Below are positions 4,410-51,000 of a stretch of DNA of 64,000 nucleotides, piece by piece. The notes beneath the pieces are model-generated. The model was not told where the DNA came from. It did no database searches and saw nothing but the letters and a program-made list of their open reading frames with translations. Positions within the stretch are counted from its first letter, which is position 1; the number at the start of each line of letters is the position of its first letter. The translations under genes were made by a program, and so were the position numbers. The DNA comes from Owenia fusiformis (lineage: Eukaryota; Annelida; Polychaeta; Sabellida; Oweniidae): positions 24,125,936 to 24,189,935 of the forward strand of contig CAIIXF020000006.1 in NCBI GenBank assembly GCA_903813345.2. Direction: 5' to 3'.

Positions 4410-4410
4410 T

Positions 4411-4419
4411 TGGTGGCAG
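4411..4419 (+). other. Primer-binding site, probably tRNA-Leu
   Basis: TGGTGGCAG starts one base after the 5' LTR. Its reverse complement CTGCCACCA matches the CCA-tailed 3' end of eukaryotic leucine tRNAs of the GGTAGC... acceptor type. The Gag-Pol ATG follows only 5 bases later, so the element has almost no leader. Confidence 0.7.
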
Positions 4420-4424
4420 TCATC

Positions 4425-7400
4425 ATGGCGGACCCAGTGCCTCAAGATGTGAACGACATAGGAGGCAACGAAGCAGCAGCGGTACATGAGGACCAGCCGG
4501 CCCCGGTTCCTGTTGCACCAGTTCAGCATGTGAAAGAGTACAGGAAGGCTGTGACTCCACGAAGTTATGATGCTAAAAATACAACATGGGACAGTTGGAT
4601 GAAGCATTTCAACAGAGTGGCGGGGGCCAATAATTGGAGCCAACAGACAAAGGTTGTTATGCTTAGTACAACTCTGGATGGCAAAGCACTAGAGGAATAT
4701 GAACGTCTGTTGTCGGAAGATGAGGATATAGAGTTTGAAGCTCTGACTGCAGGAATTGCCAAGGAAGTACGCCCAACGCGCAAAGTGGCTATGGAAATCT
4801 ATACTAGGATGAAGTTGGGTGATGACACTCCCAAGGCATTTTATACCAAGTTAGTAGAGCAATCGAAATTGGTTTATCCAGTGAGTGAAGTTTCCTTAGA
4901 TGCTCGACTAATGATGGTTAAGACACAATTCATACAGTCGCTTCCATCAAAACTCCTGGAGGACATGGCCAAGCAGCATGATGTCCATCTCTTAAATAAA
5001 GATGACTTACTGGCACTAGCTACTAGAGTCTGGGAAGCTACCAAACAGAATGCAGAGGGAGCCAAAGAGGTTCTTATAGGTGCAGTAGGACCTGTGGTTC
5101 CAGATGCTGTTGTACAGCTTAGGGAGGAAGTCCAGGAATTAAAGAAGTTACTTGTGTCTTCCATGAGTTTACGTGCAACAAAAACAGAAGCCAAGCCATC
5201 CAGTACGGTATCGTGTTTCCACTGTGGGAAGGCAGGCCATATTGCCCGGAACTGTTATGCAAAACAAGGGGGTTCTTCAGGGATCAGGTGTTATAATTGT
5301 CAGGGCATAGGTCACATGGCGAAAGACTGTCCGTCACCAAATACTAGGAGGAATCAGGACACATCTACAGGAAGCCAGCGAGTATCAGGGAGCGTGTCGC
5401 AAGATAACAGTAGTCAAGTGGCAGAAATTAAAGGCCCATCAGCATTAATGGTTACAGTTGCAGTTGCAGGGAATGGTATGACCACAGAACAGCCAATGCA
5501 TTGGCTTGTTGATACAGGTGCCAAGATATCAGTCTTGGATGTCCATACTTATAACCAGTACCTACATGAGGTACCACTTCAGGCCCGTCCAGATGACTTT
5601 GAATGTGTCTCTGCGGATGGAAGTGGTATTGCAGTAGTTGGACAAGTCCAATTGACTTTAGCTATAGGTGCTAAAAAGTTGGACCTTCTCGCAACAGTTA
5701 TAAAAGGATCGACACGCACAGCATTGTTGGGACGTGATGTTTTGGACCAGTTTGATAGTTGGGCAGTATCTAAAAAGGATGGTGTGATCAGGTTAGACAA
5801 TGAGATCCTTAAGTTATGCCATGTCTCATCAGAATCTAACACAATTTGTAAAATCACACTTGCAAAAGATGTTGTGTTACCAGGTCAAAGTGAGTCCTGG
5901 GTTAAGGTCTCTCTGCCACAACGTCTTAACTCTCAAGCAGGGCTCTTTACTCCAGATGATAGACTCCTGTCCAGGAAGAATGTCATCGCAGCCAATGGTA
6001 TATGCAGGGCAGATGTTTTAACAAAGTCAGTTCAGGTGCGCGTACTCAACCCTGATGATATACCACGACGCCTCTACAAGGGTACTAACATGGGTACGTT
6101 TGATTCAACAGTGGTCGGAAATTTTGCAACAGTAGCTGATCCTTTTGGAAATAAGGAAAATGATGTACAAATTAATGAATTTAACACACAAGTCAACCAC
6201 AAAACAGGTGGAGAGGAGGACACATGGTTTTCACAAGCAAGTAAGGTGTGGACGAATGAAGTACAACATCTTAGTGATGATAAATCAAGGAAAATCTTGG
6301 ATCTCCTAAATGCATCTAGAGCGGCGTTTTCAGAAGATGGTAATGACCTTGGCAAGACATCACTGTTACAACATCACATTGAGCTCAAAGAGAATAAAGT
6401 CATACACCGCCGACAATACAGACATAGTCCAAAGGAGCTAGAAATCATTGATAATGAAGTTGACCGCATGCTTGCGTCAGGCGTGATTCAACCATCAATG
6501 TCTCCTCACTCCTCTCCAGTATTGTTGGTACCGAAAAATGGTGGGAAGTGGAGATTCTGTCACGATAGCAGATTCCTCAACGATGCCACTGTTGATCAAC
6601 ACTTTCCGATAATCAGGATTGATGATGCTATTGATCATTTGGCTTCAGCTACCATATTTTCAACGCTCGATGCTACTAGCGGGTACCACCAGGTGGAGCT
6701 AGATGATGACAGTAAACCGTTGACGGCATTCTCAACTAGAAAAGGCCACTGGGAATTCTCAAGGATGCCATTTGGATTGAAGGGAGCACCACACACTTTT
6801 CAAAGACTGATGACTTTGATAATGCAAGGTCTTAATTACCAGGAGGTCCTGGTGTATCTCGACGATGTCATCGTTTATTCCTCGACGTTTGAAGCACACA
6901 TCCAGTCCTTGCAGCGAGTTTTCAAGCGACTGATTCAACATGGTCTCAAACTTCAGCCAATGAAGTGTCATTTTGCCCAGACAGAGGTGAAATACTTGGG
7001 ATATGTTGTGGATGCTCAGGGAGTGAGACCTAATCCTGATGCAGTTAGAATCATCATCGAGATGAAGACCCCAGAGACAGTGGAACAGATGTTAAGGTTT
7101 TTGGGCAAGCTCAATTACTACCGTAGATTTATCCAGGGGATGGCTGAGACAGCAAAACCATTATATGACAGCATCAAAGAGAGTCGCATTAAAAGGACCA
7201 AGATGTTAACCCTAAACAATGATCAGTTGCAGACAGTAGAAATACTCAAGAAGAAACTAGCCTCATATGAAGTTATGGCTTATCCCCAATTTGACAGAGA
7301 TTTTTTGGTTGATACTGATGCATCGGCAAATGCAGTGGGTGCATGTCTTTCTCAGAAAGATGACGCTGGTCATGAACGACCAGTTGCCTTTGCAAGTACT

Positions 7401-9752
7401 ACCTTGAGCAAGGAGCAAAGAAACTACTCCACCACGGAAAGGGAATGCCTGGCCATTGTATATGCAGTGAATCAGTTCAGGCAGTTTCTATATGGGAAGG
7501 AATTTATCTTAAGGACAGACCATAATCCATTGGTATGGCTCAGGAAGACTAAGGAGCCAAAGGGACGTTGGGCAAGATGGCTGATGCTTCTAGAAGAATT
7601 TCCCTATAAGATCATTTACAGGAAAGGAAGCGAACATGCCAATGCAGATTTTCTCTCACGTTTGGGAGATGAGGGCTCAGTACAAAGCCCTGTGTATAAA
7701 TCTGTAGGCACACAAGTGAGTGACACCTTGGAAGTTAACAAGTGTGATGTGGTGAAAAAAGGTGGAGTTGATATTGGGTTACAGAACCCAATTCCTTCTA
7801 AGAGGGTTACAGGCAGTGACCCAACACCACACACTCTCATCCAGCTTACCTCCCCATTCCTGGATCCAGTGAATCAAGATGAAGAACAGCATATCTCAGA
7901 TATCAAAGAAAAGCCCAATGCTACAGATGAGATCGTTAAGGCTGACGGGGTGGAGGAAATCAAGGATACAGTCACTGAGGACAAATTATTGGAGCTTGAG
8001 AATACAGATATCGAAGATGAAATCCAGACACTCAATATGAATACACTAAAGAGGGACCAATTAGAAGATCCAGATATAGGTATAGTTATGAAGTGGATTA
8101 GTGGAGGCGAACCTACCGAGGCAGTACTGAAAGGAGCTTCAAGAACAGCGAGGTGGATATTTAGACAGAGGGGACAGCTACAGATCAGAAAGGGAATTTT
8201 GTACAGAATAGTTGAACGAGAGAATAATCTGTCCCCAATTAGGCAAATTGTTCTACCTCAAACATGGCGTGAATTTGCCTTAGAGGAGCTTCACGACAAT
8301 ATTATGGCCGGCCATTTTGGACCAGAACGCACATCAGCAAGGATCAGGTTAAGATATTATTGGCCTGGCTTTCAACAAGATGTCGAAGACTGGTGTTCTA
8401 GTTGTTTGGAGTGTCAACACAGGAAATCACCAAGAAGTAAACCTAAGGCCCCACTGACTAATATCCCTATCAAAGGAAGGCCCTTTGAAGAGATAGCTAT
8501 GGACTTTGTTGAGCTCCCACCCACATCTAGAGGCAATAGGTATGCATTAGTGGTAGGAGATTATTTGACAAAGTGGGTCGAAGCGTATCCAATGAGAGAT
8601 ATAAAGTCTGAAAAGGCAGCATCCTTACTGGTCCGTGAGTGGATAAGTCGATTTGGTTGTCCAGTGTCCATCAATTCAGACCAAGGTTCACAGTTTGAGG
8701 GTAAACTGTTTACTGAATTGTGTAGAATTCTGGAGACAAAGAAGAGACGAACAACATCATATCACCCTAAGACAGATGGGATGGTGGAGAGGAGCAACAA
8801 GATGTTGATAAATGCACTCTCAATGTATGCAGAAAATGATAGGGACTGGGATCTTAAACTTCCCTTAATTTTGTTTGCATATCGTACCAGTGTGCATAGT
8901 TCAACTGGGTTTTCACCTTTTATGCTCACATATGGTAGAGAGGCACACCTTCCCATTGATTGGATGATTGGGGAAGAGTATCCCAGTGAGAAATTGTCCA
9001 CACAAGCCTGGGTAGCTCAACTTCAAAAGGACATGAGGGTGGTATTTCACCAAGCACAAGAGAACATAAGTAAAGCTCAAAGGAGACAAAAAGCACAACA
9101 TGACAAAGACCTCAAAGGAACCTTCCAAACCTATGAACCTGGAGACAAGGTAATGCTCTATGATTATACGGCCCGAGGAAAAGATGGTAAATTGAACAAT
9201 CCCTGGAAAGGCCCATTCAAAATACTACAAAGGACTAGTAATGTAACATACAAGGTAGACATGGGGCACAGGGAAATACATGTAAACTATGACAGATTGA
9301 AGAGATTTGTCAGTAGAAAACAATATAATAGAAAAGCGGATGAAGTCAAACAGACAGTTAATCCAACCAGAGTGAAACAACGAAACAGCCAAACTGACAG
9401 GGTACCAAAACCAAAAGATAATAGTTCAAGCTCAGATGAGGATGACCAACAGTATACGAGTTCAAGCTCAGATGAAGATGAAATAGAAGTGACCCTACCA
9501 AATCAGATGAACGAAGTTCAAGATTTGACAGAATCACCATCTGACTCCTCTGAAGAGCAGATAGAGGAAAATCATGCTTCCGATGCTGATTCTGAAAGCT
9601 CAGTACATGAGGACAATAATTTCTTTGTCGAGGAAAATGAACTGCCATATGGCAAGAGTGGTTACACAGACGATTTTTCAAGATATCATTGTGATGTAAG
9701 CAATGATAACATTTTACCATTAGGTAGCAGACGTAGTTGTACTAAAAAATAG
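4425..9752 (+). CDS. Gag-Pol polyprotein of the Ty3/gypsy element
   Basis: A single frame of 1775 codons without frameshift or stop encodes capsid and replication enzymes together. In order: a Gag capsid region (about residues 20-250); two CCHC zinc knuckles starting near C264 and C289 that bind RNA; an aspartic protease with the DTGA active site at about D363; reverse transcriptase with YLDD at 811-814; RNase H beginning around D963; integrase with an HHCC zinc finger from about H1290 and a catalytic D-D-35-E triad at about D1360, D1419 and E1455; then a GPF (GPY/F) module near 1596. The last 150 or so residues are a serine- and acid-rich tail that I do not recognise. ATG 4425 is chosen as the first Met after the LTR; the frame is open right back to the LTR edge. 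All catalytic motifs I can check are intact. No env-like membrane segment is apparent. Confidence 0.96.
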   Translation: MADPVPQDVNDIGGNEAAAVHEDQPAPVPVAPVQHVKEYRKAVTPRSYDAKNTTWDSWMKHFNRVAGANNWSQQTKVVMLSTTLDGKALEEYERLLSEDEDIEFEALTAGIAKEVRPTRKVAMEIYTRMKLGDDTPKAFYTKLVEQSKLVYPVSEVSLDARLMMVKTQFIQSLPSKLLEDMAKQHDVHLLNKDDLLALATRVWEATKQNAEGAKEVLIGAVGPVVPDAVVQLREEVQELKKLLVSSMSLRATKTEAKPSSTVSCFHCGKAGHIARNCYAKQGGSSGIRCYNCQGIGHMAKDCPSPNTRRNQDTSTGSQRVSGSVSQDNSSQVAEIKGPSALMVTVAVAGNGMTTEQPMHWLVDTGAKISVLDVHTYNQYLHEVPLQARPDDFECVSADGSGIAVVGQVQLTLAIGAKKLDLLATVIKGSTRTALLGRDVLDQFDSWAVSKKDGVIRLDNEILKLCHVSSESNTICKITLAKDVVLPGQSESWVKVSLPQRLNSQAGLFTPDDRLLSRKNVIAANGICRADVLTKSVQVRVLNPDDIPRRLYKGTNMGTFDSTVVGNFATVADPFGNKENDVQINEFNTQVNHKTGGEEDTWFSQASKVWTNEVQHLSDDKSRKILDLLNASRAAFSEDGNDLGKTSLLQHHIELKENKVIHRRQYRHSPKELEIIDNEVDRMLASGVIQPSMSPHSSPVLLVPKNGGKWRFCHDSRFLNDATVDQHFPIIRIDDAIDHLASATIFSTLDATSGYHQVELDDDSKPLTAFSTRKGHWEFSRMPFGLKGAPHTFQRLMTLIMQGLNYQEVLVYLDDVIVYSSTFEAHIQSLQRVFKRLIQHGLKLQPMKCHFAQTEVKYLGYVVDAQGVRPNPDAVRIIIEMKTPETVEQMLRFLGKLNYYRRFIQGMAETAKPLYDSIKESRIKRTKMLTLNNDQLQTVEILKKKLASYEVMAYPQFDRDFLVDTDASANAVGACLSQKDDAGHERPVAFASTTLSKEQRNYSTTERECLAIVYAVNQFRQFLYGKEFILRTDHNPLVWLRKTKEPKGRWARWLMLLEEFPYKIIYRKGSEHANADFLSRLGDEGSVQSPVYKSVGTQVSDTLEVNKCDVVKKGGVDIGLQNPIPSKRVTGSDPTPHTLIQLTSPFLDPVNQDEEQHISDIKEKPNATDEIVKADGVEEIKDTVTEDKLLELENTDIEDEIQTLNMNTLKRDQLEDPDIGIVMKWISGGEPTEAVLKGASRTARWIFRQRGQLQIRKGILYRIVERENNLSPIRQIVLPQTWREFALEELHDNIMAGHFGPERTSARIRLRYYWPGFQQDVEDWCSSCLECQHRKSPRSKPKAPLTNIPIKGRPFEEIAMDFVELPPTSRGNRYALVVGDYLTKWVEAYPMRDIKSEKAASLLVREWISRFGCPVSINSDQGSQFEGKLFTELCRILETKKRRTTSYHPKTDGMVERSNKMLINALSMYAENDRDWDLKLPLILFAYRTSVHSSTGFSPFMLTYGREAHLPIDWMIGEEYPSEKLSTQAWVAQLQKDMRVVFHQAQENISKAQRRQKAQHDKDLKGTFQTYEPGDKVMLYDYTARGKDGKLNNPWKGPFKILQRTSNVTYKVDMGHREIHVNYDRLKRFVSRKQYNRKADEVKQTVNPTRVKQRNSQTDRVPKPKDNSSSSDEDDQQYTSSSSDEDEIEVTLPNQMNEVQDLTESPSDSSEEQIEENHASDADSESSVHEDNNFFVEENELPYGKSGYTDDFSRYHCDVSNDNILPLGSRRSCTKK

Positions 9753-9770
9753 AGGGCTGTGTGTAAGGCA

Positions 9771-9783
9771 AGGAAGGGAGGAG
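9771..9783 (+). other. Polypurine tract of the retrotransposon
   Basis: A pure purine run AGGAAGGGAGGAG ends exactly at the first base of the 3' LTR (9784). This is the expected site for priming plus-strand DNA synthesis. Confidence 0.85.
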
Positions 9784-11325
9784 TGTAATATACCTCTTTT
9801 CTATGCTTCCAGGTGATCCTGGTGGCCTTATACTAGTGTGCATGTGAACTCTACCTACCCAGCTGTTGTCATAGCCTTCTAGCTTATTGCACCCTAATAA
9901 ACACTAGACTGAATGTTAACACGCTATCTCTTAAATGCATCCTTCACCTTCTGCATGCCTTATTCCTGTAGTGATAATCTCCCTGTGGTGGTAGTCTTAT
10001 ACCTTTAGTGATTATTGTATAGTGACCTTCTTAGATCCAGCTAGAGGTACTTGGTATAATAAACTGACATAAATAAATATGCTACAGAGACACTCAGGGC
10101 GAAGTGCTTCAGTATAGATCATATGATAAAGTGATATATAAATCTGTAACAAAGACACTTAAGTGACATATGATAATATGGGCAATAGTATAGATCATAT
10201 GATAAAGTGATATATATAAATCTGCAACAGAGACAATTAAGTGGCATATGATAATATGTGCAACAGTATAGAGCATATGATAAATTGACATAGATTAACA
10301 AAGCCACAGAGACACTCAAGGTGGAGCACAACAGTATATTTCAATAAAGTGATATACATATCTATGACAGAGACACTTAAAGCGACACATGATAGTATGG
10401 CGATGGTATTGATTTAGTGACAAAGACACTATTTGTTGAAAGTAACATTATGTTTATTAGAGCATTGGTTTCGTTCTCAGAGACTCTTGTAATAATGTAA
10501 CAGAGACACTCAAAGCAAAGTCCGACAGCGTTACAGAGATATTCATATGGCAATTGACACTGTGTTTATTATATTGGTATAATTACTAGGAACGCATAAT
10601 TGATAGAGAAACGGAGAGAATCGTTAGATTGCACAGTATTACATCAGTTGGTTTCAGAGACACTCTTATGAAAGGTGACATTGTGTTTATTATGTTGGTG
10701 TAATTACTAGAGACTCATACTTGATGGAGAAACAGGCAGAGACAATTGTTTGATTAAACACCGTTATATAATTGGTTACAAAGACACTTTAATATAAAGG
10801 GGACATTATGTTATTACAGTGAGGTTACCCTTTGCACAGAAAATGACAATAGCTTGATCTGAATCTGGTGTATCAACTTAAATGTGCCTTATATACCATA
10901 TTATTGGAAGTTGTATGTTCAGGGTAGTGATTCTACAGCACAGGTGTTGAAAAACTGAGTTTAGATTATAGAACGTAGTGAGGTTGGGTTAGTGTACCTA
11001 TAGAGCGTGGTTCACCCCCATTTAAAGTAACAGAGTATAGTTAGGCCTATTGTGAGTGGCAGGATTAAGTTTATCAACCCGGTGTCTGAATTGAAGTATA
11101 GGATTAATCAAGAGGTCCAAGCAGATCTTACTAGGTCAGATCGTTAAGACAGATAACTCGAGTTTCTATAGTTAAGTCAGAATAAGTTAGTGATAGCACT
11201 TAGGTACATATATTATACAAAAACCATACTTTACGATATAGTTGGTATTACAATTACTTGTATGTAACATTGTAACTTTATATAAGTTTAAAATAGAAAT
11301 ATAGTTCAGAAAGCAACTATTTACA
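9784..11325 (+). repeat. 3' long terminal repeat
   Basis: 1542 bp, same length and, by eye, same sequence as 2868-4409, including the CAGAGACACT array. It is followed by the TGCA target duplication at 11326-11329. Confidence 0.96.
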
Positions 11326-11513
11326 TGCATAAAAGAACAGCTCATATTTGCATAATATGTAGTCCTCTCATTTAAGATCTTTACAAATTGATGACATGCA
11401 AGGTGAAGGTCAAGTTCTAGGTCAATGTTGCATGAAAACCAATTACGGATCAAATTGGTTGTTAGTGGGGATTTTTATGAACGTGTGAATGATACTTATC
11501 AAGGAGTATTCTG

Positions 11514-17700: not shown

Positions 17701-20700
17701 GAGCCAGTCTTTCTTCTAAGCTGCCTACATACTAAAATATATACAAAATATTTATATGATAAATAATAATAGAAATATGGAAAATATAATTTAAAAGAAA
17801 TAGAGAATTGCAAAGCTCAACATGTAAGAACAAGACATTCACATGCAAAATGTCACAACCTGCCATTTATTACAGACACCAACTGCCGAATGCCATTTGA
17901 TACAGACGCCAACTGCCAAACACCATCCACAAAAAGTTGGAGACAATATAACAATATGTCACCACTTGTGGTGACATAATACAAATCACAAAATCTTAAT
18001 TTGGTTAACTTGTATTTATGAAATGAATAAAACTTACCTCTTTTTTCCTCTTTCTGGATAAGCTGGCTGATTCTCTATTCTTAATCATTCTTTGTTGCCG
18101 CTTGACAACTTTGAGCTGCATAATATAAAGTTTTAAAATATAAAACATGAGATATATTGGTAAATAAAACATAAAGTTTTAAAAGATAAAATGCATAAGG
18201 TTTTGAAATATATAATAAATTCAGTGTTCTGAGACAAATTAAGAGACACAAATATAGATTCATTTCAATAAGGCGTGTAAGAATTGTTAGTATTAGAATC
18301 ACTTACATCATTTTCATTATGATTTTGAGACGTGGCTTGAATTAACATTTTGCCAGCAGGTGGAGCTGGTGGTTTACTCTCCTGTGGTGGAGGTTGAAAC
18401 TTGAGCAATCCTTGCTGAGTCAGACGTGTGAACTCTTCTGGTGTCAATACAAGGGGTTTAGTTGTGCATTGGGCTGAAATAAATCACAAAATGGGTTTAG
18501 TTCTCCATGGAATTGAAATACATGTAGATGCAGATACATGGCCAAGTAACACAAATCATTAATATAAAGCAAGTTTCACACATGGAGCATTGGTCCTAGT
18601 ATACTGTACATTTATTTATTTTTATTTAAAGTATGTATGTTTACCATAATTTTGAACATTACATACATCCAAGCATTTGCAAATGGGTTGTATAACAAAT
18701 ATCAATTATACGTCGTATAAAATATATTTGGGCTAAGTTTGCATTTTATTATCATTACACATAGATTCCCATTTGATATCATATCATATTATAAGAGGAT
18801 CTAGAATCTGGACATATCTAACTAAAGTCAGTTCAACAACTCACCTTTATTAGTTGTATTCAATACTGTTTTAGGCTGTATTAAAGGCACTGGTTTAGGT
18901 TGCAATTTCATCTTCTTATTGGCTGGCGTCCCGTTTAAATCTGCTAAGTTTGTGGTAATAACAATTGTATTTCCATTCTGTGTAATGTTGCTTTTCACAG
19001 CACTGTTTAAACCGTTCGTGATCACATTCTGTGGCTGAGAAGTAACGATATTACCCGCAGGTAAAATGTTTATATTTTTGTTGAGCCCCTGGAGGGTTGT
19101 CGGGCTGATGAGGAATGGTTGGCTGGTACAGGTGCTGCCACCTGGTAGTTCTTCTGCTTTGACGCAGACGTCGCTAGGTGGTATATGAGGGATGACATCA
19201 TTGATAGTCTGAAAGTTCGGGAAATAATTTTAAAATAAAACTAACAAACAATGCCATTTATATTCTCTCAAAAAATTTTAGGGTGTTCAAAGTGGTAAAA
19301 ATCCAGATTTTGAGACTATAATACAAGTCTTCAAGGATTGAAACAAAACTGCTTATCCTGTAGCTAGATACCACTTCAATTTAGGATCTTACATCTTAAA
19401 TAAAACATTGACCTGACTTGGGTAATTAGCTATACTTCTCATCATAAATGACCCTAAAATAATTTTAAATTCATAATGATATCTTACATACACAATCTAT
19501 AGAATTAGATATTAATTATTTTCTAAAATATTATAGCTTTAAGAAAATAAATTTCACTGAGTGAGCAGTATAGCAATTTCCAAACTGAATATACTATATG
19601 CATCTTTTTAAATTTGAAAGGTGACTACATGTTACATATGTGCAACATTAACAATTTTTCCCAAGCTTAAATAATTAAAGAAAATGAGGTTAAAGCCTAT
19701 TGATATCATCAATAAACAAGGCACAGACGTGAACAATATCGTACCTAAAACACAGCATTGTGGTCTTGTTGACCAAGAAAGCAAGATGGCCGCAGAAAAG
19801 TTAATCAGCTCTAGAACTTATCACTGTGTAACATATGTAAAAATTTGAACGGTTTGGCTGGAAACCTGTAGACAAGCCTTGAAAGTGAAGATTTTAGGAT
19901 GGAAAATCCAAAATGGCCACCTTAAGATTTACCCAGAATGCCCAAAAACTAATCAGTTCTTGACGTTGATATGTAGAAACATCCCTGAAAATTTCAGATG
20001 AATCCCTCAAATGGTTTGGCTGAAAACCTGTAGACAAGTCTTGAAAGTGAAGATTTTAGGACGGAAATTCCAAAATGGCCACCTTAAAATTTACCCAGAA
20101 TGCCCAAAAACTAATCAGTTCTTGACGTTGATATGTAGAAACATCCCTGAAAATTTCAGATGAATCCCTCAAATGGTTTGGCTGGAAACCTGTAGACAAG
20201 TCTTGAAAGTGAAGATTTTAGGACGGAAAATCCAAAATGGCCACCTTAAGATTTACCTAGAATGCCCAAAAACGAATCAGTTCTTGACATTGATATGTAG
20301 AGACATCCCTGAAAATTTCAGATGAATCCCTGAAATGATTTGGCTGGAAACCTGTAGACAAGCTGAAAAGTGAGACGCCGCCCGCCGCCTGTCAAGCTGA
20401 CTACAATATTGTACCTCTTGTTAGGTACGATAAAAATTAAAACTATTAAATAAGGGTTGTTTTCAATGTATGAAGAATTGAGGGAGCGTACCTGTGTTGA
20501 GAAGGAATCAAGGGAGCCATCATCTGAGCTGTGGGAGAATGAAGGAGACAATGGTTCCTGCTTCACACTGGATCCTGTAAGAAGCAGTAGAAGTTAAAAT
20601 ATCATTTTCTAAATTACATGTGTATAAATAAATCCAAAACATATACATATCATACTTGCAAACAATACTGACAATTTATCCATAAATTGTGATTTTTCAA

Positions 20701-26700: not shown

Positions 26701-29700
26701 GAAAAATACTGTAAAAGCTACATTTTAGATTATTGAGATCAGCATCAAATCTCTAAGATCATTTGCATTTAAGGCAGAGGGTCATGTGGCAAATCAATAG
26801 GGATTCTAAGTAGACAATCGTAAATCATTTCCATGTACATCCTTTGCCATAAAATCAATGTTTATAAGCCTAGACAGAGGGAATAAAACTATTTCCAGAT
26901 TGTATCTAGTTTACGACAGTGAATACATCATATTGATTTTAAATACTTGCATTTGAGTGACAAAAAATGATTGATCATAAAAGATAATGTATTTGTATGA
27001 GAAAAATTTAACACATACTTCATTGATTTCTTTTGAAAATCAATAAATTCTTTTTCTATTCTTTTTATTCATTCAATAAACTCTCACTATTTTTCAGGAA
27101 AGAGGAGATTGTGTAATTTAAGAATCATACAAGGTGAACTTTTATCTGGACTTTTATTTTGTTTAGCCCCAAAAGCAGAGAACATGCCAAAAGTGAGGTA
27201 GACTTTAAATCGTGTAAATCTTGTAAAATTCTAGTATAATCAGCTACGCTGAATGTTAACCATTTGTAAAAGCATTATTACTCAATGGTTCAACATTTAA
27301 TACATTAAAACTAACAAGGAATTGATCAACCCCCCCCCCAGGTGCAATTGACTGGCCTTTCCATGTTTACCAGACAACAAAACAATCCAATACTAAGGAA
27401 TTCTGGGACTGCCAGTCTCATTTGTCTGAAATAAAAGTTTTGCAAAAACAAAAACAATTAGATTTTATTTTGGTCCAGGGCCTAAACTGCTAAAGGTCCT
27501 CTAAGGATAAAGTCCTTAGTCCACAAAGATATTAGTCCTTGCAAAAAGTTTCAACTACCACAAAACTTAATTGAAAATTCCTACAAATAAAGACATTTTG
27601 AATGGTGGCAGACTGTTTTCCAAGCATTTGTCCTTTGATTTCCTTCTTCACTTTCACTCAAGATATAAAGAAAAAATTAATTAATTAACAGCTCTTCAAA
27701 GGATACCTCAGTCATGACCTGACCTTTACATGTGCATCATTTGACTTGTTGACTTGAATATATATATAACTTTGCAGTTATATTTCCCTTGAACCTTGTT
27801 TACATACAGACAGAAGTTTTATTTTCTGAGGCCTTAGGCTTGGCTATATGGTATGAGCAAGGCCATCAAAAATCAGGGGGGTTAGTGTTATGCCTCGGTC
27901 ATGTTAACTCCGATTCATTGGCCGGCGCCCAGGTGATTGAGTATTTTGTTCAAAACTGAATACAGGCCAGCGCCTGGCCGATGTATCGGAGCAAATGTGA
28001 CCCAGCCATTATGTATGAAAGTTCCCCTCCCCCTCCCACAGAAATCTAACATGTGTTGGACACTCCTAAATTCCCAGCAATTTACCACTTTCACCATCTC
28101 TAGTTTATGTGTCAAAATACATGACTAGGAGCATATTAAAACTATATCCATGGGGGACTGTTTTTGGATTGGGTTCAGCCAATTTTCCGCTGTGTTTCAT
28201 TTCAGGGAGAAAACTGTTGGATATAATACAAGAATATGACAAAAATTTGGATTGATTTATATAATTTTAAGCAATGTCAATGACTTTAAATTCTAAATAG
28301 GGTATTTCAGTTCAAAAATAATGATAACAAAAACCTATTAAAGCATGTTTAAGTATTTCGCAATTTTCAAAAATAAATAACTAATCGATTTTCTTATAAT
28401 TACATTTCTGCTCAATAGATATGACGTTTATTGCATTGCAGGAGCTCTATTTACATTTTTACAGAAATATTAAAATACATTTTTATTAACATGAAATGCA
28501 TGGAAGACCAAAATACTGCTTTTTATAAGAAAAATATACAACTAAAATCAATCTTAAACATATAGACTCAATACATATATTAATTGTGATAAAACCTCAA
28601 CCATTTACACAAGTATATAATCAAATCATGAAGATATGTCCTTCAAGATCGGTCCTTCACTGCTTTCATAGCAGATCATGTAATACAATGAATTACTCTT
28701 GGTCCAAGGATGAGAAGATACACATTGCCATGTAAAAAAAATGTGCATTGTGATCTCTCCATTCTATTTCACTACTACACAGATGAGACAGATTAATTGT
28801 TTCATATTGGATTGGCAGGCCATACTTTTAATTTTTACGACAAAAATATGTGAAGGAAGTACTGGTCCACTTGAAAATATAAATTGTGATTACTTTTTCC
28901 GAGAAATTTATGTCCTGAAATAACATTATTACACTCAAATCTGATTTTTAATGCTTATTTAAATATTATTTGAGACCTTGGAATATCTCCATTTATTTAT
29001 TCATCTATTGCGCAACTAAAGTAACCTTAGACACCATCTTACAGACTCGAAAATATAACCCATACATGATTTTATGCACATATGTACTATTATTTGTCAA
29101 CGTGTATCTCAAAGTTATATATGTATATGTCCTTTATTGCTTAATTTTCCTTTGAGAATGTCAAAACATTTAGGACCTTGTCGGATTAAAGTATATTTAA
29201 AATGTTTTTAATCGTTCCTTTCCAAGACCTTGGTCCCAGTATGGTAGATTAAGCATGTTAATTTCATACATCAAGTCTATATCTTTTTTCTCCATTAGTC
29301 CTTTATAATGTAAGACATATATGGTAAATCTCAAATATTGCAAATTTTGACTGTCATCAATAGTCCCAAGTGCTTATAGTTACAAATTCGGACTCAACGT
29401 CTTAGAAGGCATGCCCTTTCAAAAGTTCGGAGCAGGTTGACAATAAGCACCAACGGATTGCTATGTGAGTATGACATGAAATGAATCTCCATGCATCCAG
29501 AGAAGTCAACATTTATAGTTCATATACAGGAGGCATGTGTATTGAGCAATGTTTGAATTTGCGTTTATTTCCATCAATTTGTGTTCGCTCATGGAAGGCA
29601 CATTTGATCGACACGAGGAGCAAATCCAGCGAACAACAAAACCATCAGAAGTAACACGTAGATCATGTACAGGATAAGCGCCATATTGTTCAAAGTTAGT

Positions 29701-32700
29701 TTTCTCCAAATCAACAAGTGTTTATAACAGATCCTAAATTTGAGCGATAGATTGTTGTGTTCATGGCAGACACGCTTGTTCAAATCGTGGTCCAAATCCT
29801 GCGAATAGAGCAATCACAACCAGTAGCAGATAAAACAGATACAGCACAAAAGCCATATTGGAAATGTTTGTGTTTGTGAAGTGAATTTCACAAAAATCCT
29901 TCCCTCATTTAATATTTGGACTGTACTGCTATAACATCTCTAGTCTCTCACCACAATCAGTAAACTTTTGACTTTGGTTGCACTTCTTATATAGATACTT
30001 ACGAAGACAATCCAATTAGCTCATTATCGACTTTAGTCTTTGTACAGTACGTGTGGCCTCCTTTCAATGATACAGGATGCAATATTCAGTTTTTTAATTT
30101 GAGGTAATCATTTACAGATATATGTATGCTATCTCTGTGAAAATATCCTGATTTATTACTTGAGCAGTTCAACCTTTATGCTTATAAGTCCCAGCTTCTA
30201 TTCTTGATAGTCTGGCTGATGAAAGTTCTCAATTTTGTAACCTTAGTCCATGCGTTCATGATTCTGCCACATGATCACAACACATATTAAAATTCTGACC
30301 AATCACGGCATTGCAAATCACATACTCTAAGGCCAAGTGAACTAGTTGTTAGCTTAATCAATGATTTAAGTGGCAATATTGGATTGCAATAAAAACAAGA
30401 AAACAAAGGATCAAATATTCTAGCCTAATCTGGGCTATAACCCAATATCTAGATTAAATAAAAATATGATCAGCAGCCCAGTCCATGGCTGTGAACTTTA
30501 CATAACAATGAATGAATAGCCACATAAGCTAAAAATAAGCTATTTTAATACGACCAATCTGTTATAAAGCACTTCACTGACAAGGGAGAAAATAAAGCCA
30601 ATAAATATTAAAAATATTAATTAGCTTGAAGTGACCAGGACAAGAGCAATTTAAATATTATTGCAAATTATCACTGGGCCTTGAGGACACGTACAGTTTT
30701 TAAAACAAATCAAATCAGATAGATTTACCTAATCAACTAAATAATGCGAATGGGAAATTCAGCAAGGGCTTTGAGAATGCGTGAAAATTCTGAACTTTGA
30801 TAAGCCACAAATAAGTAAACAAACAAGAGTAAACTGAACAACAAACACCAATTACATATATTCAATAGCACCTCACCAAAATCCGTCCCTATACAAATAA
30901 ACCAACATGTACTATTATAATCACATGTAAGAAAGGCAAACAATATTAATGGACGTTATTGCATCATCACAAATGGCAAAAAAATATTGCATCATGATGA
31001 ATGCAATATACTCTTGCATCATGCAGTGGTCAAGATGCAATTGAACACTGACCACTAACTGCAGGTATAATTGCTGATGCAATATATGAAAAGTTCACAA
31101 CATGTTTGTCTCCAACTGAGCCAGTGATGTAAGTAAGCCCCGCCCAATTCCTGCTAAAATATTGATCTCCCTCTTATATGAAAGTTTAATAAATAACTAG
31201 AATTACTGACACAGAATGTGACAAAATGTCACCATACGCAGCCCTGTCAACTTGGGAAGGCCTAACATGAGTGACTTACAAATGTTGAACTGTGCAGGAC
31301 ATGTATGGCTGCAATCCAACCAACAAATAAGTAACCTTTATCTTAATTTTGAGCTTTTTCTTTGCAGTTTGAAGCAGGGCTCTAAATTTGATTTCAAATC
31401 TATTTATACTACAAATTCAAAGTCCTCATAGGGACTTCTAATGTTCTTTTCACCAAGGATGAATCATTTTCTCCTCCAAATTCCTTGTTCCCAGCGTGAA
31501 TTCCCAAGGATGTGAGTGTTACCATTTTCACCACCAGGTAGCTGATTCAGGGTAAAAAACATTGCAGGGTATTACAAAGTTCCCTTAAACTTGAATATTC
31601 ACCAGTTTTAGTTCAATTTTCATATTACTGTTATATATTTGATAGATATACAAACTTATATATATCCAGTAAAAGAAAATATTATCTGTCCAATACAAGA
31701 AAAGATATCTCTCTTTTTATGATTTTATGACATGGGGTCAATGGGGAATCTCCCCGACCTATAGAACTTACATTTTCAAGGTTACCTATATTTTACAGGC
31801 GACCCAGGCGGGCGCTTTTATTTTTTTCATAGGGGTGGTAGGATCAAAAACACATTCCAAAATTATTTTATTGCATGATTATCTTTGAGATTCTGTTGTC
31901 GTGTAACTATATTGCTAACCACAATTGGAAAAAGTTCCCTACCCGAATTAAAAGTAACCAAATTGCCGTTGAAAATAAGAATATATTGCTAACCACAATT
32001 GGAAAAAGTTCCCTACCCAAATTAAAAGTAACCAAATTGTCGTTGAAAATAAGAATATATTGCTAACCACAATTGGAAAAAGTTCCCTACCCGAATTAAA
32101 AGTAACCAAATTGTCGTTGAAAATAAGAAATCGTGTTTACTGAAGCAAGGTTGGGATGTGTAATTGGGAGGAATCAGGGCAATCCGCGCGAGGTTCGTTT
32201 TTTCTTGCTCTTCACAAGATAGCACCCATTTGTTATCCCATCGAACGAAAATCGTTCAAAATCGGGACAAACTGAGCATGACATAAGTAAACTGAACAAT
32301 ATTGCAAAATATTACACAGGATTTAAAAGGCCGAAACTGTTTGGAAAGTTCCTAAATTTAGTGTAATTAAAATCTTGACCGGAAGTTAAAAATCCAGTGT
32401 CCTTGAGGTGTTACTCCGGTAAATACCACCTCCGGTTTTAATACTTTAAAAACAAAGCCATACCAACTTCAATGGTGTGTATAGTAGGTTTAAGTTTATC
32501 TACTATGGCCATTTGAGGTATGTATGTAAAGCCGAGGCCAAGTACTTTCTTAATGTGCCATTTTTAGAATAAAATCGCAAGAATATAGTCCCATAAATCG
32601 GAACTACTTTATTCGTTAATTTTCATCGGTGAAGCAGGGATTTTACTTAAAAATGAGTCCCTATGTTGGCGTAGTGATATTAAAAAATCGAGACGCAAAC

Positions 32701-38305: not shown

Positions 38306-38973
38306 CACACCGGAATAGCCTGACTACGGTAAGTCAGATACCATTGTCACAAATGGCGGACATAACCGTCGCTTCAACTGTTTAATCACTTGGTCCTCAT
38401 TTCATGGGATTTTATCGTTGCTAATTCTGTGCATGCATTAAGCTCTTGTGATAATGTATCATATGAAATCCCATTTTCAACCAAATTGGGTTGTGAATCG
38501 CCACAATATAGCATCTTCGATATCGTCAATGACAACGGAATCTGAATTTGAGTAATTTAGAAAGACAACAGCATATGTAATTACAGTGTCCATTGTCCCG
38601 TATCTCATTTTGATCGGTTAAATTAAAGAATTTATTTCGATGGTAGAACATTATTAACTGTACAATGAGTATAAAGACACTTTGATTGATCTGAATTTGA
38701 GTAATTTAGAAAGACAACGGCATATGTACTTACAGTGTCCGTTGTCCCGTATCTCATTTTGATCAGTTAAATTAAAGACTTTATTTCGATGGTAGAACAT
38801 TATTAACTGTACAATGAGTATAAAGACACTTTGATTGATTGTTGTTCCAAAGGAATTTAGTCTAGGTGCTCTATTAAACATAGAGTTCATTAAAATCTAA
38901 TTGAAGCGACGTTTATGTCCGCCATTTGTGACAACGGTATCTGACTTTACCGTTGTCAGGCTATTCCGGGGTG
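38306..38973. mobile_element. Foldback MITE abutting the DAXX 3' end
   Basis: 668 bp with arms of about 80 bp: CACACCGGAATAGCCTGAC at the left and the inverse of CACCCCGGAATAGCCTGAC at the right. The flanking direct repeat is AACAT (38301-38305 and 38974-38978). The interior has a 149-bp tandem duplication (units from 38542 and 38691), each with AATAAA on the minus strand. It ends 34 bp from the DAXX stop codon. Confidence 0.85.
38631..38785 (-). terminator. Two AATAAA signals inside the MITE, downstream of DAXX
   Basis: AATAAA on the minus strand at 38780-38785 and 38631-38636, one per 149-bp unit. They are the first canonical signals I see after the DAXX stop at 39008. If used, the transposon supplies most of the DAXX 3' UTR and its polyadenylation site. 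Confidence 0.4.
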
Positions 38974-39007: not shown

Positions 39008-42000
39008 TTAATCTAAAACAATAATATCTCCAGATTTTGTCTGATCAGATTTAGTTTGTGGTTGATGTTTAGGTTTGTGATCAGATTTAGTTTGTGGTTG
39101 GTTTACTTTAGGTTTGCGTACAGTAACTTCATCGTTGGTTGACAATGATCTATATGACTCAATTTTTAGCCCCGGGGAAAATTGGGGCGATCTTTGTGAT
39201 TGAGAATTCTTATGATTTGTTGCAACTGATATTGGTTTGGTCAACTTTGATCCCATTGCATTTGTTGCAGCATTGAGAGGTGCAACAATTTTATCCCTTG
39301 ATGCGGCATAGTGGTCGATTGTAACAAATTTGCCAATCGTTGTGGAAGTATTTTTTGTACTGGTTTTGATCTGATTGGTTAATCCAGAGTTCTGAACAGT
39401 CTTGATTTTGGGATTGGAATGCTTGCCTCCTGAGTTATGAACTTTAGTAGTTCTGTTAAAAGGTTTGGAAGGTGTAGAATGTTTTAAGGGCGATGAAATC
39501 AAATCCTGAGATTGAGAGTCTATAATTGAGCTAAAATCAGTTTCATACTCTGAGTATGAAACTTCCTTTTCTTCATCTTCATCGTCAATAATTTCTATAC
39601 TTTGACGGCCAGTATTTCGCTTTTTAGTGCTAGGTCTGTCAAGTTTAGCAAACCGCCTGCTTTTCTTTTGAACTTCCGTTGAGGTAGGATTTTGTGAATC
39701 TTCAGAATTGGAGGAGAAAATATCTGGAGATTGCTCCTTGGTGCTTTTTTGGTTTGGACCATTACTGACTCCTTCTGATTTGGGCGATAGCCTGTCAGAA
39801 TCAACATTCTGTACACCATTTAGTTTTTCTTTTATTTCTTCAAATATAACATTTGCAACCTCCATTTTAGATTTTATTTCATCATCAAGGCTGGTATCAG
39901 ATTCATCACTGATCTTTTCTTTTTTCTTGACCTCAGGTTCATTCACATCATCCTCATCATCTATTTCCAAAGTTATAGGTTCAGAATCTTCAGAAGCATC
40001 AATTTTCTGCTTTGATTTAGTGTCTAATTTAACATTGTTATCATTTTGAAAATTTAGAGGTTTAGAAGACTCTGGATTGGAATCTATGTCTTGGTCCTCA
40101 AACAGATTAGGACTAGCTTCATCTTCTGAAGTAGCAGCTTCATTGAAATTACCATTGTTAGCTTTACCTTCTGTAGGATCTTCTTCATCACTTGTAGGGG
40201 CAGATTTATTTTGTGTTGCAATAATAATTTTTTTCGTTCGTTCTGCAAACGATTTGGATACTTTTAATTTCAGTTTTGATGGACTTGGTTTGTAAACTGA
40301 TTTTCGGATTTTCTTTCCTGGAGATCTGATAATTTCAGATGGAGCATCTTTTTCAGTTTTTTTTCTTTCCTTTATGACGTCATCATTATTACTGATGACT
40401 TTTACTCCAATAATGTGAACACTTCCAGAGGTTTCACTTTTTATACATACATCACTATCTTTCTGGGCATCACATGTATCCATAGGCGTTTCCTCTAATT
40501 CAATATCAGAGTCAAGATTGGTGGTATCATTTAGAATTTCTTGACTACTTGATTCTCTGTACTCAGCAGATGTAGGATCTTCTAATAAATCCCAATCATT
40601 TTCTTGCATAGCAATGTCACTTTCCTGAGACTCCTGACTATCTTGACTATCAAAGATTGTTTCTGGTTTACGTTTGTGCCTATTTTGTTTGTGGATATCC
40701 ACAGGAGTCCGGTCTCTTGGAGTTACACAAATTTCAGGCAGTTCATCATCAATTACTATGGTAATCTCATTGTCAGATTCAACATCATCTGTTGGGTTTA
40801 CAGATTTAACATCAAGGGTTGTATCATCTGTGGGGTTTACAGATTTAACATCAATGGTTGTATCAACTGTGGGGTTTACAGATTTAACATCAAGGGTTGT
40901 ATCAACTGTGGGGTTCACAAATTTAGCATCAAGGGTTGTATCACTCATAGGGTTTGTAGATTTAATGTTAGGGGTTGTTGTATCATTGGATGTGATAGGT
41001 TTAATTCCTGGGGATGAATGCTTGTCTGATTTAGGTTTAGGTTCTGATTTATCTCTGGGGCTTCCACTTTTAAGATCAGAGACTTTTATTCTCCGTGGCA
41101 TCTTTGGAGTTTCATAATTAGATTTGTGTCTGTTATTATCCTCAATAACTGTTGTATCTGAGTGCATAGATGTTATATTCTTAGGGGTTGGTTTTGAATT
41201 TAAACTTTTGTCTTCAGGTCCAGTTTGCTCTTTGTCACTATTATCATCGGACAAAACCAGCATTTCAGGCAGCTCTTGCGACTGTGAATTTGGCGATAAT
41301 GGACTAGGGGTCCGAGATGAATCTGGAAAACAAAAATATAAGAATCACAATATTTATAAAGATTGATTTTTCATTTCACTATAAAGGTATATGCATTCCC
41401 TTTATTTTCCCATCAATAATATTACAATGATGCATGCTATCATGCAGCCATGAAGTAAACTATCAGCTTTAAAAGATAGTTCTGTTCCTCATAAAGAATA
41501 AAGAACAACTATTTCTCATTTAAAATATTATAATTAAATACAATATCCTAGATGCAAGTAGAAATAATCTTGATTTACATCATTAAAAATTCACAATTCA
41601 GTCAAACTGGTGTCATATTTGGAATCTACATATAAAATTACATCTAAAAATGTTTTGAAAAGAGTTTATCAACTTTGAAAATTTAATTTTCTTTGAAAAT
41701 GTGACTTCTAGGTCGGGGAGATTCCCCATAAACCCCATGTTGTAAAACTACAAAAAGTGAAATATCTTTTCTTGTGTTGGGCAGATATTTTCTTTTACTG
41801 GACATATTTTAATTTGTATAACTATCACATATATAAGGGTAATTTGAAAAGTGAACCATTAAAACTGATGCATATTCAAGTTTAAGGGAATTTTGTAATA
41901 CCCTGCCATGTTATTTCCCCCGAATCAGCCACCTGGTGGCGAAACTGGTAACTACCTACTCGCATCTGAGTAATTGTAACTAACTGTAAATGATGAAATA

Positions 42001-48000: not shown

Positions 48001-51000
48001 CACACTTCTGATGAGAAAACATGTCCAAATACATTTATCAAAAAATCATATTGATTCCTTTAGGTAAAAAATACCATTTCATATCTGCTTTAAGCTGAAA
48101 GCGTTGTATTTGGCTGCACCTGTTGTTATATGAGTATGATAGATGTCATCATTGTAAATATACTTTACCAAGAAGTCTCGACCAACAGAATATTCAAAGG
48201 AATTCAAAAATAGAATATAAAATACTGTGATGGTTGCTATCTTTTCAAAAATCATGCCAGTGTTTTACATGTTGCTCATTGTGCTTTTTAATAATTAAAA
48301 TGTAAATGCTGTTGGATGTTTTATGTTTTATGCTTCCACAAGAAGTGGTGACACATTGTTTTAGTCTCCAACTTTTTGTGGACAGCGTTTGGCATTTTGT
48401 GTTCTGCATCTGTAGCAAATGGCAGGTGGTGACATTTAACATTTATGTCCTAATGTTGTGGTTTGTCATTTTCCAGGAACCACATGGACCCAGGAGATTG
48501 TTTGGTTGTTACATCACGGAGCCGACACAGACAAAGCAAAGGAAACAACACTGACTGAAAGATTTTCATTCATCGAAATGATCCAACAGATCCGTAAAGT
48601 ACCCGAGATGCTACCGCCAAAACTGATCAAAACTCATGTGCCGTATTCAAGCCTTCCCAGGAATTATCTCAATAATTCCACAACGAGACCGAAAGTTGTT
48701 TACATAGCACGCAATCCTAAAGATACAGCAGTGTCCTATTTTCATTTTTACAGAGCAAATAGGGCCTATGGGCTGTACAAAGGAAGTTGGAGTGATTTCT
48801 TTGAAATGTTTATCAACGAATACACAGTCTATGGATGCTGGTTCAAACATGTTGTATCTTGGCACAACTTCGCCAAAATGGAGCCTAACATTCTTTTCTT
48901 AAAATATGAAGACATGAAAAAGAAACCGACAGAGCAAATACACAAAATTGCCACATTCTTAGGTAAAGACATTGATAAGGAAGAAGTATTGAAATTAACC
49001 GAGCACACAAAATTTGAAAGCATGAAATCAAACAAAGCCGTTAACTATTCATCAAGTGAGAGGATTGATGCTTCAGTTTCACCATTTATGAGAAAGGGTC
49101 AAATCGGGGACTGGAAAAACTATTTCACAGTTGCTCAAAATGAAAGGTTCATGATGATGTATGAAGAAAAACTGAAAGGCACTGATTTGACATTTGAATT
49201 TGAGTAACACCACACCATGCTGCTCTGGGAATTAACACACTCTAAAATGTTTCCCCGATAGGTCAAAATAATTGACTTATCTATCGAGGACAACAATGAA
49301 AAGATTAATGAATATACACATGTTTAACAATTAGTTGTCACCACCCTGTACTTTAGCTTGTGACTGGAGTAAGATAATTTACATTCCCTTTCCCTATCAA
49401 GATTTGAGGTGATTTAGTCATAATAATGTGAATAATAACATAATGTGACTTTATCATTGCAGAACAGTAATGGGATATCAATATAGGCAACATCGGATAT
49501 ACATATATCTTATATTAAACAAATATCAACAGTCACTTAGCCATCAAAATTCTTTTTCAATCAAAAATCTGGAAAATATAAACTTCATAGGCTGGGTCAA
49601 ACAACTCAAGAAATTGATATATAATACAAATTATTTCAATGATTCTTTACATCCACCACATATACAACATGTTCAACAGGTACTTTCTCCAATCAACCAG
49701 CAGTGTTGAAGTCATATAATGCATAGTGTCCTAAATGATAATTTTATGTTCTATTGGGGCACACTAAATCAAGTAATACATTTCTATATATAAATATTAT
49801 TTTGTCTTTGTGTTTCTCTTCTGCTTCCTCAAAAAATTAAATAAATAAAACTCTCTACATTACAATCCATGCGCTGCAACAGTTGCTTTAAATTTCTTTA
49901 AGATATAGTTATAAATGACATATGAAGGTGCTAAATGAGATTTCATCAAGTCTTTTATATCGGTAGATACTTCAATTTTTCCTGATGTTTTTTTTAACGC
50001 TGGTTTTCTCAATGATACATAGTCTCTCCATGCCCCCCTAAAATATTCTGGCAATAATTTCTCAAAAAACTGAATAGATATATTGTATTGTTCTGTAACA
50101 CCAATAAATGTATATGCATTGTCGATGTTGTATATTGCCTTCTCTATGGCATACGTAATGTTGTACAGGCATGCGTCAGAATGGCCACAGAACCATCTCG
50201 GGTACACCGAAGTGTCCAAGTTGCATCGGGTTAAATCTTGCTCTGATTTCGCACCAGATAAACACTGTTGGAGGCTCATGTTTTTCTCTTCAGGAGAGAA
50301 CTTTTTTTTTAACAGGCTATCGTGTCTGTAGAAATAATATGATGATATAGCATGTTCTACTGGATCTCGAATCATATTTATATAGACTGGCTCCTTTTTG
50401 TGATCTTCTCCAAATGGCACATAATATATATGTCGATTGAAAATTGTCCTTTTTTTCATTCTACTACATTTCCGCACAAATGCTTTGCAACCTTCTTCTT
50501 TTAATCGTTCATGGAAATAATCACTAGATGTTATTGCATTATAAGAATTATTTCTTTGTAATCGTTTAATCATTGTCAGCAAAGTTGTTGAGCCACATTT
50601 TGGTATTCTATTATAGATCACTAGGGATGTGTTCTGCGTGGTTGGTTTCCTAAAAGGACTTGTTGAAGTAGCATCAATATATTTCCAAATATCCACATCT
50701 TCATAAGGATAATGTGGTGGGGCAATACTTGCTTCCTTGATGGGAACCTGGTTACGATTATTCTTAAGATGAACAACACATTTTATTAGACATTATCTAA
50801 TTCATTTTGAATGCTCAAAATGGTATATATGAGTTGTCAACTCTCTTGAAATTCTGATTTGTATTAAAGATGCACATGTTGAAAGTATACCCAACCTAGA
50901 AATAACATTTCAATGAAAATACAAATAATTGCTTATGGTAGTGGAAGGTACTGGAACGTTCCAAAAAATTGCTAGACCTGCACATGTTATTTTCTAGTAC

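What the first reader, a model, noticed from the sequence alone, without database searches (positions are those of the whole stretch)
29564..29993. Compact dicistronic-looking gene for two related 31-residue membrane microproteins
Two ORFs of exactly 31 codons stand in tandem on the minus strand (29856-29761 and 29684-29589), 76 bases apart. Their products align without a gap: a hydrophobic helix, then LFAGF-x-PR, then a tail with Q-x-CLP. Eighteen residues are identical and nearly all others conservative. About eleven codons differ only at synonymous positions, and the flanking DNA is not alike except the start context CAATATGGC. That is the signature of old duplication under protein-level selection. 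A TATA box stands 131 bases upstream and AATAAA 20 bases after the second stop, so the whole gene may be about 400 bases and intronless. I know no family with this tail. Tandem microprotein ORFs on one mRNA are known in animals (tarsal-less, sarcolamban), but these sequences do not resemble either.
Basis: partly seen in the sequence, partly recalled or inferred. Interest (0 to 1): 0.87.

Follow-up and report, generated by a model that had tools for sequence, protein, structure and literature searches.

The report
Twin tiny membrane-protein genes in worm
In the DNA of a marine worm, two short neighbouring stretches appear to encode a matched pair of 31-residue membrane proteins that evolution has preserved; no relative was found, and the layout resembles a few paired tiny-protein genes known from fruit flies.

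Summary
Minus-strand ORFs A (29856-29761) and B (29684-29589) each encode 31 residues, lie 76 nt apart and align without a gap, 18 of 31 identical. Of 32 codons, 8 are identical, 11 differ synonymously, 13 change the residue; differences by codon position are 13/3/17. Flanks show no similarity above shuffles. A codon-model test rejects neutral divergence (omega 0.045-0.126, 2dlnL 16.3-16.6; 0 of 300 neutral simulations). So this looks like an old duplication kept by protein-level selection. The host is Owenia fusiformis or near it. No relative was found in the collections searched, but none was a collection of annelid genomes and the window's own genome could not be searched. Each product is predicted as one long helix with a short tail. 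TATA box, shared start context, AUG-free spacer and AATAAA fit one bicistronic mRNA, but each is weak and no transcript data were available. A sarcolipin relationship was tested and not supported. Best reading: a two-ORF microprotein gene laid out like sarcolamban or sloth1/2, of a sequence family not matched to anything known; its molecular target is unproven.

The parts
29986..29993 (-). TATATAAG box, first base 137 nt and last base 130 nt upstream of the A of ORF A's ATG; candidate core promoter
   Evidence: TATAWAAG occurs 9 times on this strand of the window, so suggestive only
29929..29937 (-). Two-residue upstream ORF (ATG TTA TAG) in the presumed leader
29888..29908 (-). Six-residue upstream ORF (MREGFL) in the presumed leader
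29761..29856 (-). ORF A, 31 aa, [31 protein letters not shown]; start context A at -3, G at +4; no ATG inside except one overlapping its stop codon
29711..29764 (-). 17-residue ORF whose ATG overlaps ORF A's stop (ATGA), ending before ORF B; probably incidental
29685..29760 (-). 76-nt spacer between the ORFs, without any ATG
29589..29684 (-). ORF B, 31 aa, [31 protein letters not shown]; same start context; three internal in-frame ATGs plus one overlapping its stop
29564..29569 (-). AATAAA poly(A) signal candidate, 19 nt between it and ORF B's stop
   Evidence: 89 such hexamers on this strand of the window

Best explanation
A small two-ORF gene of Owenia fusiformis (annelid) that encodes two paralogous single-pass membrane microproteins. 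SHOWN by sequence statistics: the two ORFs descend from one ORF by a duplication old enough that flanks and synonymous sites have been randomised, while the protein, above all L-Y-x-x-Y, LFAGF-x-PR and Q-x-CLP, was kept. INFERRED: both are read from one roughly 400-nt mRNA starting below the TATA box and ending after AATAAA. A is translated first; B is reached by 40S subunits that resume scanning after the short ORF A (or that pass A's AUG), helped by the absence of AUGs inside A and in the spacer. Each product inserts through its N-terminal helix, probably N-cytosolic and C-lumenal, leaving a 10-12-residue tail with one conserved Cys outside; in an oxidising lumen that Cys could link A and B or like chains. 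The pair most likely works as a small regulatory subunit of a larger endomembrane protein, as sarcolamban does for SERCA and Sloth1/2 for mitochondrial complex III; which protein is unknown. My odds: both ORFs are real coding genes about 0.85; one bicistronic mRNA about 0.6; membrane-anchored regulatory subunit (not secreted peptide) about 0.5.
For: Protein identity 18 of 31; codon-position differences 13/3/17; omega 0.126 or 0.045 with 2dlnL 16.3 and 16.6 under two codon-frequency models, and 0 of 300 neutral simulations (first model) reach the observed value, highest 9.8; flanks unrelated. Best 19-residue hydropathy 2.79 and 2.82; predicted helix 2-28 with confidence about 95 and 91 over residues 1-20 and 63 over the next ten. 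No ATG in the spacer and one in the 169 nt between the two start codons, that one overlapping A's stop. ORF A's synonymous codon choice exceeds all 109 control ORFs. Known precedents for paired related smORFs on one transcript: passages of PMC9681215.
Against: No transcript, ribosome or cross-species data. ORF B's synonymous codon score is ordinary (46% of 109 control ORFs as high), and full codon log-odds of both ORFs are below the control mean (71% and 91% of controls as high), as membrane composition may cause. Few AUGs between the start codons is not rare: 12.9% of 2388 control stretches have one or none. Two upstream ORFs would hinder translation of A if the leader is as drawn. Both ORFs have the favourable start context, which argues against leaky scanning, and 76 nt is short for reinitiation (recalled). 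A GTAAGT donor-like hexamer just upstream of the TATA box leaves spliced leaders possible. Identical residues do not gather on one helix face (61% of random draws as clustered), so no interface is indicated.
Confidence: 0.55

Rival explanations
1. Two separate tiny monocistronic genes left by tandem duplication, each with its own promoter.
For: The spacer holds a TATAAA, about 40 nt before ORF B (visible). The FlyBase passages read (PMC4528330) report 45 of 159 dicistronic fly loci with monocistronic transcripts for both genes.
Against: A start site 25-30 nt below that TATAAA would leave a leader of about 10 nt for B (arithmetic). No AATAAA was looked for or seen in the 76-nt spacer that would end a separate A transcript (sequence).
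Confidence: 0.2
2. Secreted peptide pair: the hydrophobic stretch is a cleaved signal peptide and the tail (for example [12 protein letters not shown] and [12 protein letters not shown]) is released as a short peptide, perhaps a disulfide-linked dimer.
For: Hydrophobic N-terminus with tail after it, and Ala at 19 with Leu at 17 is an allowed cleavage site by the recalled -3,-1 rule. The tail is the best conserved part: LFAGF-x-PR and Q-x-CLP.
Against: No basic residue before the hydrophobic core, a long core (residues 3-21) more typical of an anchor, and a predicted helix that runs on through residue 28 (low confidence there). No signal-peptide predictor was available.
Confidence: 0.2
3. Sarcolipin/phospholamban-type SERCA regulator (true family member).
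For: Same length as sarcolipin (31), one helix, and at an offset of 3 residues R24 and Q27 fall on sarcolipin R27 and Q30, L5 on L8, and Y6/Y9 on F9/F12. Sarcolamban, the fly member, is also encoded as two related ORFs on one transcript (passages of PMC9681215).
Against: Score is no better than shuffles: joint best 12.0 against a null mean of 12.9, 2843 of 5000 shuffles as good; the offset-3 alignment scores 8.5. Pfam finds nothing for A or B, while the sarcolipin control finds both its own family and phospholamban. The Asn essential in sarcolipin and phospholamban (passages of PMC8396278) has no counterpart: residue 8 is F or I.
Confidence: 0.12
4. Not a gene: two chance ORFs inside an old repeat or decayed element.
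For: The window has many tandem repeats, and similar neighbouring ORF pairs arise from them (ranks 1 and 3 of 2396). No annotated relative was found.
Against: The similarity stops within a few bases of the ORFs (about 4 nt upstream of ATG) and is protein-biased. No other copy in the window: the next tblastn match to A has E 1.0.
Confidence: 0.08

Closest known systems
Sloth1/Sloth2 (Drosophila CG32736/CG42308; SMIM4 and C12orf73 in humans)
   Same: Two related single-pass microproteins from adjacent ORFs on one transcript; 27% similar (passages of PMC9681215).
   Different: 79 and 61 aa, 5-nt spacer, weak start context on the first ORF, mitochondrial, conserved across eukaryotes. Here 31 and 31 aa, 76-nt spacer, good context on both, 58% identical. 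Sequences were not compared directly; Pfam gave no match for A or B.
Sarcolamban A/B (Drosophila)
   Same: Two related single-helix microproteins of similar small size from one transcript, with a C-terminal lumenal end (passages of PMC9681215 and PMC9338278).
   Different: Their lumenal ends, YLIYAVL and YAFYEAAF (passage), do not resemble PRxxQxCLP. Full sequences were not compared here.
Sarcolipin (1jdm)
   Same: 31 residues, one helix, short polar C-terminal tail.
   Different: No sequence relation above shuffles; no essential Asn; only two residues before the helix here.
tarsal-less/pri/mlpt
   Same: Several related tiny ORFs on one RNA (recalled, and passage).
   Different: Those peptides are not membrane helices (recalled); not compared by any search.
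Purriato (CG9034)
   Same: Single-pass microprotein with a conserved C-terminal part, reported in Annelida (passages of PMC10036370).
   Different: 77 aa in fly; nothing about a two-ORF gene in the passages seen; sequence not compared.

Membership tests
Sarcolipin/phospholamban regulins | Match to the Pfam family model | tested here: not met
   0 families for A and B at E up to 10; the sarcolipin control hits PF05366 (1.6e-23) and PF04272 (0.0073)
Sarcolipin/phospholamban regulins | Sequence similarity to sarcolipin above chance | tested here: not met
   2843 of 5000 shuffles score as well
Sarcolipin/phospholamban regulins | Polar residue (Asn11/Asn34 position) in the helix | tested here: not met
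   At the offset-3 alignment the position is F8/I8; role of Asn from passages of PMC8396278
Sarcolipin/phospholamban regulins | Binds and regulates SERCA | not testable with these tools
   needs biochemistry
Sarcolamban A/B | Sequence similarity to SclA/SclB | not tested
   full sequences not obtained; only the lumenal ends were seen in a passage
Bicistronic paralogous smORF genes (layout class) | Two related small ORFs, same strand, adjacent | tested here: met
Bicistronic paralogous smORF genes (layout class) | Both kept by protein-level selection | tested here: met
   from the pair itself; not tested across species
Bicistronic paralogous smORF genes (layout class) | One processed mRNA carrying both ORFs | not testable with these tools
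   no RNA data for Owenia in these tools
Sloth1/2 (SMIM4/C12orf73) | Sequence relation to either family | tested here: inconclusive
   no Pfam match at all for A or B; no direct comparison, and it was not checked that Pfam holds models for them
V-ATPase subunit e | Sequence relation | tested here: not met
   E 0.77 for A alone, no match for the A+B profile at E up to 10

The most novel reading that the evidence does not exclude
An unrecognised annelid (perhaps lophotrochozoan) family of paired 31-residue membrane microproteins that always travel as two ORFs on one mRNA and work as an obligate heterodimer, joined through the lumenal Cys of Q-x-CLP, regulating an endomembrane pump or channel: a second, independent origin of the sarcolamban-type design.
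Probability: 0.15. Interest if true: 0.78.

Novelty: new member of a known kind. Interest (0 to 1): 0.52.

Why it matters
Proteins of 31 residues escape gene finders. Here, two copies side by side give the evolutionary test within one genome that normally needs several species. If confirmed, it adds to the known paired-smORF genes, which in the papers seen here are described mainly from Drosophila, an annelid case that would show the layout arises or persists outside insects, and it offers a compact system for asking how an animal ribosome reaches a second ORF. It also suggests a cheap genome-wide screen: neighbouring small ORFs with synonymous-biased divergence and unrelated flanks.

Tried and rejected
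Sarcolipin membership: tempting by eye (R24/R27, Q27/Q30), rejected by shuffles. V-ATPase subunit e: a lone weak match (E 0.77) that vanished with the two-row profile. Tandem-repeat artefact: rejected because the flanks are unrelated and no array covers the pair. Helix-face conservation: no signal (61% and 37% of random draws as clustered). AUG depletion as proof of a scanning mechanism: too weak (12.9% of control stretches; and synonymous recoding of A gives one or no ATG in 93.5% of 5000 cases, so A's own lack of ATGs is not special). Codon usage: mixed, A high, B ordinary. Weak Pfam hits of the stop-to-stop frames (FtsL_2 E 0.69, OppC_N E 0.51) are taken as chance. First likelihood fit did not converge (free model worse than constrained) and is discarded in favour. 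Viral and prokaryote contig scans found no relative (91 and 239 pattern matches, none confirmed); these hold no annelid genomes by design, so they say little. Literature: 9 searches. The peptide strings [22 protein letters not shown] and DQMCLP occur in none of the papers held, and no paper holds both 'Owenia fusiformis' and a word beginning 'microprotein'; two searches listed only 12 of 38 and 10 of 268 papers. The fold library was not searched, since a single helix gives no informative match.
Full report
Observation. They align without a gap with 18 of 31 residues identical. Codon by codon, 8 of 32 are identical, 11 differ synonymously and 13 change the residue; nucleotide differences by codon position are 13, 3 and 17. 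DNA identity over the ORFs is 63 of 96.

Is it more than chance? The ungapped BLOSUM62 score is 108; 0 of 100000 shuffles that keep each segment's composition reach it (maximum 69). Of 2396 neighbouring same-strand ORF pairs in the window this one ranks second; ranks 1 and 3 overlap tandem DNA arrays. Unlike those, this pair has unrelated flanks: leader against spacer and spacer against 3' flank score no better than shuffles, and in-register upstream identity is 5, 5, 3, 1, 2, 1, 2 of 10 going outward. A window blastn places the only sizeable repeat exactly over the ORFs plus 4 nt upstream (67% over 100 nt, E 0.011).

Selection. A pairwise codon model gives omega 0.126 (window base frequencies) or 0.045 (pair's own position-specific frequencies); omega = 1 is rejected with 2dlnL 16.3 and 16.6 (an earlier fit failed to converge and is not used). 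This is one pair of short genes, so the omega value is rough, but the direction is clear. Codon choice gives mixed support: A's synonymous choice exceeds all 109 control ORFs, B's is ordinary, and the full codon log-odds are below the control mean for both.

Whose genome. A one-exon sulfotransferase ORF of the window (49863-50792, minus) matches at 100% identity over 95% of the query a protein named for Owenia fusiformis (P0003, contig of 40.8 Mb). The lineage is Annelida, Oweniidae. Neighbours: a Daxx-like N-terminal exon at 62075-62899 minus (Pfam Daxx E 5e-6, 27.0 bits, just under the 27.6 cut-off), and at about 18.0-18.1 kb minus a basic-zipper stretch [23 protein letters not shown] that I recognise from memory as ATF6-type, with an acidic stretch at about 21.4 kb minus that may be its N-terminal exon. 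A 778-codon minus ORF at 39008-41344 may belong to the Daxx gene but has no Pfam match. On that reading the microprotein gene sits in a gap of roughly 17 kb between two genes of the same strand. A spliced 5' leader of the downstream gene that contains the pair cannot be excluded.

Gene anatomy. TATATAAG at 29993-29986 and AATAAA at 29569-29564 bracket about 400 nt. Both starts share CAATATGGC, with A at -3 and G at +4. The presumed leader has two tiny upstream ORFs. Between the two start codons only one ATG occurs, overlapping A's stop codon; the spacer has none. Such a scarcity is seen in 12.9% of 2388 control stretches, so it permits but does not prove a scanning mechanism. B has three internal in-frame ATGs, A none. 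A passage of PMC4528330 gives resumed scanning or internal entry as options for fly dicistronic mRNAs, and its reference list names a 2005 paper whose title ties second-cistron translation to absence of in-frame AUGs in the first; I saw only that title.

Protein. Best 19-residue mean hydropathy is 2.79 (A) and 2.82 (B). AlphaFold2 with the two-row alignment gives one helix, residues 2-28, mean confidence 82, about 95 and 91 for residues 1-20 and 63 for 21-30. The only charged residues are R24 and E/D26. From the positive-inside rule (recalled) the orientation N-cytosolic, C-lumenal is slightly favoured but not secure. The conserved tail PRxxQxCLP carries the only Cys.

Relatives. Nothing was found: no Pfam family at E up to 10 for A or B; no PDB sequence for the profile, only V-ATPase subunit e at E 0.77 for A alone; no protein at E up to 10 in two searches of the 5.8-billion collection with stop-to-stop extensions (1 and 6 candidates scored); none in viral or prokaryote contigs. 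Owenia proteins are in that collection, so it seems neither ORF is held there as an annotated protein in the size range searched, which is expected for so short a gene and does not count against it. No annelid genome could be searched, and the window's own genome was not reached in 9 requests.

Mechanism. I think the most likely role is a pair of membrane-anchored regulatory subunits. [quoted passage not shown] The nature of the target is inference only. A sarcolipin link was tested and failed (control), so 'works like' is kept as an analogy and 'is a' is not claimed. A secreted peptide pair is the main functional rival.

Verdict. Observation confirmed; coding and selection well supported; single mRNA plausible but unproven; function unknown in detail. 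A new member of a known kind of gene, in a new sequence family as far as could be searched.

Noticed in passing
window 2868-11326 +: Ty3/Gypsy-type LTR retrotransposon with two 1543-nt direct repeats, 100% identical (2868-4410 and 9784-11326), around one uninterrupted 1787-codon gag-pol frame (4389-9752): apparently a recent insertion.
   Followed up: partly
window 19851-20373: Tandem array of 162-nt units, 3.2 copies, inside the ATF6-like gene region; it yields near-identical 50-aa ORFs that look like tandem genes but are a DNA repeat.
   Followed up: partly
window 38540-38839: Two copies of a 149-nt unit, 96% matches, also producing a similar ORF pair.
   Followed up: partly
window 31908-32129: Three copies of a 74-nt unit, 97-100% identical to the reference copy, about 2 kb upstream of the microprotein pair.
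   Followed up: no
window 48440-49207 + and 49860-50792 -: Two different sulfotransferase genes (Sulfotransfer_1; heparan sulfate 2-O-sulfotransferase-like) lie close together on opposite strands, between the Daxx N-terminal exon and the 39008-41344 ORF, so perhaps inside a Daxx intron.
   Followed up: partly
window 40784-41004: 39-nt repeat within the 778-codon minus-strand ORF, encoding repeated peptide units (VNPTxDTTLDVKS).
   Followed up: no
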